Below the pieces are notes generated by a model. It ran no database searches. It was given only the letters and a program-made list of their open reading frames with translations, and was not told where the DNA came from. Position numbers and translations under genes: made by a program. DNA of 17,691 bases from an uncultured Eubacterium sp. (GTDB lineage: Bacteria; Bacillota; Clostridia; Peptostreptococcales; Anaerovoracaceae): contig UQNP01000024.1 in assembly GCA_900542385.1 (NCBI GenBank), positions 1 to 17,691 of the forward strand, read 5' to 3'. Shown in pieces: positions 3,008 through 14,961 of this stretch (the first letter of the stretch is position 1; each line of letters starts with the position of its first letter).

Positions 3008-3050
3008 CCGCTGCATCAGCGAAACACGATCCGCCGATGCAGCGGTAATT
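3008..3050. terminator. bidirectional intrinsic terminator between ppk1 and the MFS gene
   Basis: A perfect 10-bp stem, CCGCTGCATC at 3008-3017 with GATGCAGCGG at 3036-3045, has an 18-base loop. On the plus strand it is followed by TAATTTTT. Upstream, the AATAAAAAC run gives a T-rich tail on the minus strand. It lies between two convergent genes, so it probably ends both transcripts. Confidence 0.85.
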
Positions 3051-12867: not shown

Positions 12868-13931
12868 ATGAAAAAAGTAAGAGGAAAAGGAGCCGCTTTG
12901 CTGACTGCTCTCATGCTTATTTCAGGATGTTCGCAGCAGAGCGAGGAAAACACGCAGCTCGATGCTCAAAACAGAGTATATTCTGACCTTCGCGAGGGGA
13001 CCTCGGAATATACACTCGAAACTCCCTATGATTTTCCGGAGGAATATGATTACGGCAGCGGGCTTATGTCCGAATTGTCTTATGGGGATCAATACAGGAA
13101 ACTTCCGGAGCCTGAAAGTGATCAGACCGTCATGAATACTGCACCTGACACGTCGGGAATACAGGTGCTTTACCTGTGGGAAAAAGACAATATGCCTTCG
13201 TCGACTGTGTTTTCGGAAGATATGGACGGGTACTTTGATGAATATGATTTTCGTCCTTATGTTACAGCTATGCCTGCAAGAGAGGGTACTGAGATAAAAG
13301 GAGCGGTAGTGCTGATGGCAGGAGGCGCATATCAGTTCCGCGGGAATTATACTGACACTCTTCCTACGGCTGCACATCTGAGAGAACTGGGCTTTCAGAC
13401 CTTCATAGTAGACTACAGACTCAGACCGTATACGCAGCGTGAAGGCGCTATTGATGTGGCAAGAGCTGTGCGTTTCATCCGCAGCAATGCTGACGCATAC
13501 GGCATAGACCCTGAAGATATTGCTGTTATGGGATATTCAGCAGGGGGAATACAGGCCGGAGAATTTCTGCTGAATTTTGATGAAGATGTCAACGGAAGTG
13601 TTCTTGACGACAGTTATGTTCCCGATGAGCTTGACAGTGTGCCGGCGCGGGCTTCGGCTTGCGGTATGATATATTCATTTTACGGGAGACTGAGCGTAGC
13701 CTCTATGGATGAAGAAGAGCTTCGGAAAGGCGATCTGCCGCCTACTTTCTACTGTTACGGCACGGAAGATCCGTTTTACGGACAGTTTGAAGAGCAGTAT
13801 GAACTGATGCAGGATATGGGGCCGAAGTCAGCAGGATCGTTCTTGAAGACTGGCCTCACGGTTTCGGAGGAGACGGCGGCTGGGTAGAAGATTACGCAGT
13901 ATGGCTGGAACAGATCTTTAACGAAAAATAA
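12868..13931 (+). pseudogene. alpha/beta hydrolase lipoprotein with a single-base frameshift near its C-terminus
   Basis: Esterase of the alpha/beta hydrolase fold (BD-FAE/acetyl-esterase type), exported as a lipoprotein: MKKVRGKG, hydrophobic core, lipobox LISGC with C21. The oxyanion region is LMAGGAYQFRG, the nucleophile GYSAGG, and the acid residue is in YGTEDPFYG. The reading frame as written stops at 13885-13887 with a nonsense tail. One frame over, from 13821 to the stop at 13929-13931, the sequence reads AEVSRIVLEDWPHGFGGDGG and ends normally, including the catalytic His in WPHGFG. Adding one G to the four-G run at 13818-13821 (GAT ATG GGG GCC GAA) joins the two exactly, so one base has been lost, in the genome or in sequencing. 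It starts 14 bases after the preceding hydrolase. Confidence 0.82.
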
Positions 13932-13948
13932 AAAATAAATAGTTTTGC

Positions 13949-13996
13949 AAAAAAATTCAAAAAATTCTTGCAATGTGTGGCCGGCGGTGCTATAAT
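13949..13996 (+). promoter_or_regulatory. strong sigma-A promoter with phased A-tracts, driving the structured RNA
   Basis: TTGCAA at 13968-13973 and perfect TATAAT at 13991-13996 have 17-base spacing. Two A-tracts (13949-13955 and 13959-13964), 10 bases apart, lie directly upstream like an UP element. Start predicted near 14003. It lies just past the last operon gene, so the downstream transcript is independent of that operon. Confidence 0.75.
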
Positions 13997-14002
13997 AACA
14001 TT

Positions 14003-14367
14003 AAGAAAAGCGAAAGGCGATAGCCAAAGCTTTCAAGATAATCAGCTTACAGACGGTTTGTATGTAAGTCAAGAAAGAAGGTGATTCCGCCAGAAATCTA
14101 CACAGAAGAACAAAGATAATACCAACCTGCTGAATTTAAAACGCCGACGAAGGGGTGAGGAGAAGTCCCAGGCGGGATACCCCGTGCGGAAGATGGCAAA
14201 GCGGAAACTTCACAGTACCAACGAGCAGAAGACGAAAGAGCGGTCAAAGGACTGCAGATGAAAAAGATAAGAAAAAGAGTCACAGGCATCAGAGGTCAGA
14301 AGATGAAAGCTTTACAGATAAAAAGGTTTTAAAGGAAGAGGTTGGTATTATTATTTTTTGTTTTTTT
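14003..14367 (+). ncRNA. unassigned large structured RNA, about 365 nt
   Basis: I do not recognise this family. The plus strand is markedly poor in T and rich in A and G between helices. Helices visible: GAAAGGC(GATA)GCC...CTTTC at 14012-14034; GCTTAC/GTAAGT at 14045-14069; GGTG(ATTC)CGCC at 14080-14091; a perfect 13-bp long-range helix, 14116-14128 with 14339-14351; an 8-bp helix inside it, 14135-14142 with 14326-14333; GGGGT/ACCCC (14152-14156, 14179-14183) stacked on GTCCC(AGGC)GGGAT; and GCGGTC(AAAG)GACTGC at 14240-14255. The 3' strand of the 13-bp helix runs into T6-G-T7 (14354-14367), so the long-range helix itself forms the terminator. The strong promoter at 13968-13996 sets the 5' end. 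It could be a stand-alone RNA or a very long leader of the cupin gene. Confidence 0.65.
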
Positions 14368-14426
14368 GATCCGGTAAATATACTGCGGATGATCGAAAAA
14401 ATTATATATACAGTTTAAGCATATTG

Positions 14427-14475
14427 ATACATTCACTATAGGTATTTGACATATATAATTTGATTGAGTTAAAAT
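14427..14475 (+). promoter_or_regulatory. promoter and possible operator upstream of the cupin gene
   Basis: TTGACA at 14446-14451 and TAAAAT at 14470-14475 have 18-base spacing. A perfect TATAAT at 14454-14459 is also present but lacks a good -35. Just upstream, ATAC (14427-14430) and GTAT (14442-14445) form an inverted repeat with an 11-base gap abutting the -35, a plausible LysR-type site given the LysR gene at 14990. The stretch 14368-14426 holds a weak ATCCG/CGGAT hairpin (14369-14390) and nothing else I can name. Confidence 0.55.
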
Positions 14476-14523
14476 CAGGCTTAGGATAGAGGAATGAGAT
14501 CCCCGTCCAAAAGTCTGATTTTT
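14471..14523 (+). terminator. terminator-like hairpin in front of the cupin gene
   Basis: AAAATCAGGCTT (14471-14482) pairs with AAGTCTGATTTT (14511-14522): 12 bp with one G·T. A smaller GGAT/ATCC pair (14484-14487, 14499-14502) lies inside. It ends in five T (14519-14523), 5 bases before the cupin ribosome site. It overlaps the -10 box, so it would form only in transcripts arriving from upstream or starting from the earlier TATAAT. Confidence 0.5.
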
Positions 14524-14541
14524 ATTGAGGAGGTATGGAAT

Positions 14542-14961
14542 ATGGATAAAGATAAAATGATGGAAGATCTTGGCGGCGGTGCGGTATTTGAAGTTGGAGA
14601 AAAAAATCCTTTCGGAGAATATTTTTCTGGAGACAGCTATTTGAAAATGCTCACTACAGAGGGAGTAGGCATTGGCAATGTGATATTTGAGCCCGGATGT
14701 ATAAACAACTGGCATATACACCATAAGGGCGGACAGATACTGCTTGTTACAGGCGGAAGAGGCTGGTATCAGGAATGGGGCAAGCCTGCTCTTGAACTGC
14801 ATGCAGGAGATGTGGTAAACATTCCTCCTGAAGTAAAGCATTGGCATGGTGCGGCTAAGGACAGCTGGTTTTCCCATCTTGCTGTTGAAGTTCCTGCCGA
14901 TGGAGGATCCAATGAATGGCTTGAAGCCGTTTCAGAAGAAGAATACAGCAAATTAAAATAG
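14542..14961 (+). CDS. small single-domain cupin protein
   Basis: A 139-residue cytosolic cupin, a beta-barrel that usually binds one metal ion. Motif 1 is G52-CINNW-H58-I-H60 followed by Q65, where many cupins have Glu. Motif 2 includes GDVVNIPPEVKHWH with H100 and H102. The segment QEWGKPALELHAGDVV and the ending KDSWFSHLAVEV match the cupins often found beside or fused to carboxymuconolactone-decarboxylase-like proteins, and one of those is encoded at 16157. The start ATG 14542 has GGAGG (14529-14533) 8 bases upstream; the same frame is open back to 14494 without a ribosome site. It has its own promoter region and precedes the LysR gene by 28 bases. Enzymatic role unknown. Confidence 0.88.
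   Translation: MDKDKMMEDLGGGAVFEVGEKNPFGEYFSGDSYLKMLTTEGVGIGNVIFEPGCINNWHIHHKGGQILLVTGGRGWYQEWGKPALELHAGDVVNIPPEVKHWHGAAKDSWFSHLAVEVPADGGSNEWLEAVSEEEYSKLK

What the first reader, a model, noticed from the sequence alone, without database searches (positions are those of the whole stretch)
13949..14367. Unassigned large structured RNA with its own strong promoter and a long-range terminator helix
The 610-base gap between the hydrolase and cupin genes holds a near-consensus promoter with phased A-tracts, then T-poor sequence with several short perfect hairpins. A perfect 13-bp pairing (14116-14128 with 14339-14351) and an 8-bp inner pairing (14135-14142 with 14326-14333) close a domain of about 235 nt, and the outer helix ends in a U tract. 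Terminator stems are normally local; a 3' arm whose only visible partner is 210 bases upstream suggests a folded, abundant RNA of about 365 nt. I cannot match it to RNase P, tmRNA, 6S, SRP or any riboswitch I know.
Basis: partly seen in the sequence, partly recalled or inferred. Interest (0 to 1): 0.75.

Follow-up and report, generated by a model that had tools for sequence, protein, structure and literature searches.

The report
Lone intergenic RNA with split terminator
A gut bacterium carries, between two metabolic genes, what looks like a free-standing non-coding RNA of about 365 bases whose transcription stop is built from two distant stretches; no relative was found, so it is a modest candidate rather than a discovery.

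Summary
The anatomy is real: an extended -10 promoter, a T-poor stretch, a perfect 13-bp long-range pairing (14116-14128/14339-14351), a perfect 8-bp inner pairing and a U-tract. A helix of 9 bp or more abutting a T-tract occurred in 0 of 200 shuffles; the fold has z -4.5. That excess is nearly all the long helix: truncated at 14338, z is -1.6, within the window's ordinary range. So a long-range terminator is supported; a richly folded domain is not. No Rfam family matches. The organism is probably an Anaerovoracaceae bacterium (one named RarA hit). BLAST over draws of 299, 95, 28 and 345 genomes and a single-sequence covariance model over 28 and 95 genomes gave what I judge chance matches, but close relatives were probably not among them, so covariation is untested. 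Coding is disfavoured, weakly. Best reading: a lineage-restricted stand-alone sRNA closed by a split terminator (0.55). New detail: TACCAAC at 14216-14222 repeats part of the 5' arm and is a weak fallback partner of the 3' arm.

The parts
13949..13964 (+). two A-tracts about 10 nt apart, UP-element-like
   Evidence: read directly from the sequence; role inferred
13968..13996 (+). sigma-70-type promoter match TTGCAA-17-TATAAT, extended -10 (TGc)
   Evidence: consensus scan, 10 of 12
14003..14367 (+). inferred transcript, about 365 nt
   Evidence: promoter to U-tract; MFE z -4.5; both ends inferred, no RNA data
14007..14033 (+). 5' hairpin with inner GGC/GCC stem
   Evidence: (z -2.8)
14045..14069 (+). 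second local hairpin
   Evidence: (z -2.1)
14080..14091 (+). short hairpin GGUG-AUUC-CGCC
   Evidence: (z -1.5)
14104..14131 (+). 5' arm of the long-range terminator helix (13-bp core 14116-14128)
14135..14142 (+). 5' arm of the inner 8-bp helix
14144..14189 (+). G+C-rich interior hairpin
   Evidence: z -1.5 for 14140-14192; pair probabilities 0.4-0.92
14216..14222 (+). second copy of TACCAAC, fallback partner of the 3' arm
   Evidence: repeat finder; constrained folding
14240..14255 (+). 6-bp hairpin with 4-nt loop
   Evidence: (z -4.1 for 14236-14260)
14326..14333 (+). 3' arm of the inner 8-bp helix
14337..14351 (+). 3' arm of the terminator helix
14352..14367 (+). U-tract; pairs with A-rich 14104-14114 in the predicted fold

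Best explanation
A stand-alone, lineage-restricted small RNA gene. RNA polymerase starts near 14003 at an extended -10 promoter, makes a purine-rich RNA, and stops at the U-tract when the 3' arm (14337-14351) zips onto a 5' arm made about 210 nt earlier; local hairpins in between shorten the effective loop. The closed helix would protect the ends of the 264-nt domain. The purine-rich, weakly paired interior, with CAGAAGA repeated, would be the working surface, most likely binding a protein or mRNAs in trans. Shown: the sequence, the helices and their rarity in shuffles, the lack of a known family. Inferred: transcription, termination, stability, trans action.
For: Promoter match; helix plus T-tract in 0 of 200 shuffles; helix longer than in any of 300 shuffles; z -4.5; no local terminator found by the scan at this U-tract; strand asymmetry: folding z -4.5 on + against -2.9 on - and an exceptionally low T fraction on +; no Pfam domain in the 87-aa and 63-aa ORFs; the 87-aa ORF has two database relatives, both near-identical over the shared part, one implying a frame shift, and the 63-aa ORF none; a separate promoter match for the cupin gene downstream (14446-14475).
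Against: No homologue, hence no covariation and no sign of selection. Truncated at 14338 the fold is ordinary. Promoter-like sites are about as common in the window as in shuffles (41 found, 36.8 expected; but 4 against 1.7 in 13850-14600). A terminator spanning 210 nt is unusual. No transcript data. One of the three CAGAAGA copies lies at the start of the terminator helix, not in the interior.
Confidence: 0.55

Rival explanations
1. A cis-acting leader of the cupin gene (14542-14961): the closing helix is both the first helix of a sensor domain and the terminator, and a signal decides between closure (stop) and read-through. The second TACCAAC copy would be the alternative partner.
For: Same strand and next gene downstream; the closing helix abuts the U-tract; with the distal arm blocked the 3' arm moves to the second copy.
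Against: A better promoter match lies between the U-tract and the gene, 14446-14475, and the gene starts about 175 nt after the U-tract; no Rfam riboswitch match; the three BLAST hits of the RNA in 80 cupin loci of relatives are 16-30 nt long; the alternative is weak: -78.0 against -92.3 kcal/mol, only 2.2 better than with both copies blocked (-75.8), duplex -11.8 against -26.4.
Confidence: 0.17
2. A mobile-element or terminator relic: inverted repeats around about 200 nt of inserted or decayed sequence, for instance a MITE, or an ordinary terminator whose loop was invaded.
For: The two nested perfect inverted repeats resemble terminal repeats; the interior has no exceptional fold.
Against: No second copy in the window: the next best model match is 10.2 bits against 332.8. 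No copy among fetched loci, phages, plasmids or the genome draws. No target duplication seen by eye. The U-tract on one side fits a terminator better. But no whole genome of this species could be searched for copies.
Confidence: 0.13
3. An mRNA for tiny basic peptides: 22 codons from ATG 14193 overlapping (ATGA) 24 codons from ATG 14258, preceded by AAAGGA.
For: Overlapping stop and start and a ribosome-site-like AAAGGA, read by eye.
Against: T-poor sequence has few stops by composition; another predicted protein (P0122) implies one extra A in the run 14272-14276, which breaks the second frame (inferred by eye from the protein letters, and a homopolymer sequencing error is possible). The tiny ORFs themselves were not searched for.
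Confidence: 0.1

Closest known systems
Bacterial intergenic trans-acting sRNAs (general kind)
   Same: own promoter match, no long conserved ORF, stem plus U-tract at the end
   Different: terminator arms lie 210 nt apart; no homologue, target or RNA-chaperone evidence here
raiA motif RNA / ModT (RF03072)
   Same: intergenic RNA of Clostridia for which an intrinsic terminator is described (PMC11706538: abstract start, passages)
   Different: RF03072 is not among the matches even at E up to 10
OLE, ROOL, GOLLD large ornate RNAs
   Same: large bacterial non-coding RNAs (PMC12286853: search listing and start of abstract only)
   Different: no Rfam match; excess fold here is a single helix; those RNAs are longer (recalled)
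CsrB-type protein-titrating RNA (recalled)
   Same: similar length (recalled) and a repeated purine-rich motif (CAGAAGA three times)
   Different: few repeats, another motif, one copy in the terminator helix, no Rfam match

Membership tests
Any Rfam 15 family (RNase P, tmRNA, 6S, SRP, raiA, OLE, ROOL, riboswitches) | covariance-model score at or above gathering threshold | tested here: not met
   0 matches in the window; in 13880-14560 with E up to 10 five sub-threshold matches to unrelated families, best E 0.54
tmRNA | tRNA-like ends and tag ORF | tested here: not met
   ARAGORN found no gene in the window
Stand-alone sRNA gene with intrinsic terminator | promoter directly upstream | tested here: met
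   consensus match only
Stand-alone sRNA gene with intrinsic terminator | stem followed by U-tract, beyond chance | tested here: met
   as a long-range stem, since the scan for local terminators found none
Stand-alone sRNA gene with intrinsic terminator | detected transcript | not testable with these tools
   no RNA-seq available
Conserved structured RNA | covariation across homologues | tested here: inconclusive
   no homologue found, so nothing to align
Conserved structured RNA | fold more stable than shuffles throughout | tested here: not met
   z -4.5 whole, -1.6 when truncated at 14338, -1.7 for 14144-14325
Riboswitch or leader of the cupin gene | cotranscription with the gene and no separate promoter | tested here: inconclusive
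   strong promoter match between U-tract and gene; transcription untested

The most novel reading that the evidence does not exclude
A two-state RNA in which the terminator's 3' arm chooses between two copies of its partner, the distal arm (14116-14128) and the proximal TACCAAC copy (14216-14222), so that folding of the interior sets whether transcription stops: a split, switchable terminator of an undescribed RNA family restricted to one gut lineage.
Probability: 0.07. Interest if true: 0.65.

Novelty: new member of a known kind. Interest (0 to 1): 0.3.

Why it matters
If transcribed, it would add an unclassified RNA gene in a little-studied gut family and a clear example of an intrinsic terminator whose arms lie about 210 nt apart, a design that scans for local hairpins miss (one search reports none here). 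Without homologues or transcripts it is a lead, not a finding of general weight.

Tried and rejected
Homologues by DNA. blastn in phages and plasmids: no match. In 80 cupin loci of relatives: three hits of 16-30 nt; in the later loci L081-L125 only short hits, many of them the very matches that brought the loci in. Exact patterns in viral contigs: 0 in each of three scans. Searches scored 2 candidates a genome and seven, so weak homologues could be missed; there was no positive control for this query.

Of the many short matches five were read: two lie inside a gene that I take by eye for frr, one near a gene's end, one at a gene start, and one (L096) is in an intergenic-looking stretch behind a promoter-like box but shares only about 27 nt; Rfam has nothing there (where a tRNA in another locus was found). 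All five judged chance.

Covariance model R1 from the single sequence 14103-14367: 10 of 28 genomes with a match at E <= 1, best 0.002, and 2 of 95 at E <= 0.02, best 3.6e-4 (stricter filters). Nine of the 13 loci were examined as alignments: terminator-like hairpins, or purine-rich DNA that looks coding by eye (a Clp-type ATPase gene in two); L136-L139 were not read. The two were read as sequence only: one looks coding, one is a terminator-like hairpin. All judged chance.

Placing the organism: 15 RarA relatives at 99-100% identity, one of them named Anaerovoracaceae bacterium (capped list). Best RarA 77% in 10 genomes and 81% in 196; best Ppk1 45% in 28 and 56% in 391. So a close relative was probably not among the genomes searched, and the empty searches say little about sister species.

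Full report
Observation. The 13-bp pairing 14116-14128/14339-14351 and the 8-bp pairing 14135-14142/14326-14333 are exact. The longest Watson-Crick helix in 14003-14367 is 13 bp, while 300 dinucleotide-preserving shuffles reached at most 11. Asking for a helix of at least 9 bp that abuts a T-tract, 0 of 200 shuffles of 13949-14400 had one. The transcript folds at -92.3 kcal/mol, z -4.5. Pairs of the 13-bp helix have probabilities of 0.97 to 1.0, except the outermost at 0.74, and the helix is prolonged outward by pairing of the U-tract with the A-rich 14104-14114. The scan for local terminators finds none in 13850-14600; 14320-14352 folds into nothing, and stretches starting at 14260, 14280 or 14300 reach only -6.1, -6.0 and -4.7 kcal/mol.

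How much is structure? Truncated at 14338 the RNA has z -1.6; the interior 14144-14325 alone has -1.7; the 5' part 14003-14100 has -2.6; the opposite strand -2.9. Eighty-eight stretches of the same window (25 shuffles each; the two starting at 14001 overlap the RNA and score -3.4 and -3.0) have a mean of -0.87 and sd 1.3, with 2 at or below -4. Both of those are the two strands of the stretch starting at 2801, where a 16-pair terminator-like hairpin lies at 3008-3045. In plain energy, without the shuffle correction, the RNA is not remarkable either: 35% of 348 stretches of the window fold as well or better. The signal is the long helix; the case for an ornate, compact domain is weak. Some local hairpins are individually good, best the one at 14240-14255 (z -4.1 for 14236-14260).

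Promoter and composition. TTGCAA-17-TATAAT with TG before the -10 lies at 13968-13996, behind two A-tracts. Such sites are about as common in the whole window as in shuffles (41 found, 36.8 expected); in 13850-14600 there are 4 against 1.7, so position matters more than the match. The stretch 14080-14320 has 13% T; 3 of 1746 windows on both strands are as low, all overlapping it.

Coding? The 87-aa ORF on + and the 63-aa ORF on - have no Pfam match. Among 5.8 billion predicted proteins the first has two relatives. P0121 is the same but for the first residue and is listed without a source, so it may be the window's own sequence or another assembly of it. P0122 (53 aa) begins MKKIRKKSHRHQ and then agrees to the end, which by eye implies one extra A in the run 14272-14276 and so a change of frame. 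The 63-aa ORF has no relative. By contrast RarA of the same window has 15 relatives at 99-100% identity, one of which stands for 105 contigs. Two tiny overlapping ORFs (22 and 24 codons) were read by eye and not searched for; the implied insertion breaks the second.

Known family? No Rfam family reaches its threshold, and at E up to 10 only five weak matches to unrelated families appear. No tRNA or tmRNA.

Homologues. One RarA relative at 100% is named Anaerovoracaceae bacterium; no whole genome is held for the window. Searches in phages, plasmids, viral contigs, 80 cupin loci, and draws of 299, 95, 28 and 345 genomes gave no match, or short matches that I judge to be chance. A covariance model from the single sequence gave 10 of 28 genomes at E <= 1 and 2 of 95 at E <= 0.02; those examined are terminator-like hairpins or coding-like DNA. 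The draws probably contain no close relative (best RarA 81% in 196 genomes; best Ppk1 56% in 391), and few candidates a genome were scored in the large draws, so absence is weak evidence. Covariation could not be tested.

New detail. The repeat finder shows TACCAACCTGCTGAA (14120-14134) echoed by TACCAACGAGCAGAA (14216-14230), among four direct-repeat families. The four best internal repeats together exceed all of 200 shuffles; the best alone is reached in 3 of 200. CAGAAGA occurs three times, reached in 2 of 2000 shuffles, a test chosen after seeing the motif; the less chosen test, the number of 7-letter words that occur three times, is reached in 11 of 500. If the distal 5' arm is barred from pairing, the 3' arm moves to 14214-14222, at -78.0 instead of -92.3 kcal/mol; barring both copies costs only 2.2 more. 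A switch is conceivable but one-sided in energy.

Verdict. Most likely a lineage-restricted stand-alone sRNA closed by a split intrinsic terminator (0.55). Rivals: a leader of the cupin gene (0.17), a mobile-element or terminator relic (0.13), an mRNA for tiny peptides (0.10). Transcription, termination and function are all inferred. Papers: PMC11706538 was seen as the start of its abstract and passages, PMC12286853 only in a search listing with the start of its abstract. A search for 'noncoding RNA' with 'Anaerovoracaceae' listed two papers, neither about RNA genes judging by title and start of abstract.

Noticed in passing
12868-13931 +: The alpha/beta hydrolase gene (PF20434/PF07859) ends early at 13887; in another frame the sequence goes on as a hydrolase-like C-terminus to a stop at 13929-13931 (read by eye). 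Either a frame-shifted gene or a sequencing error.
   Followed up: partly
14446-14522 +: Upstream of the cupin gene: promoter match TTGACA-18-TAAAAT (11 of 12) and an inverted repeat AAAATCAG...CTGATTTT at 14471-14478/14515-14522 that overlaps the -10 box (by eye); could be an operator.
   Followed up: no
14026-14035 and 14304-14313: Perfect 10-bp complementarity containing the palindrome AAAGCTTT; it would cross the long helix as a pseudoknot or allow contacts between two molecules.
   Followed up: no
   Followed up: partly
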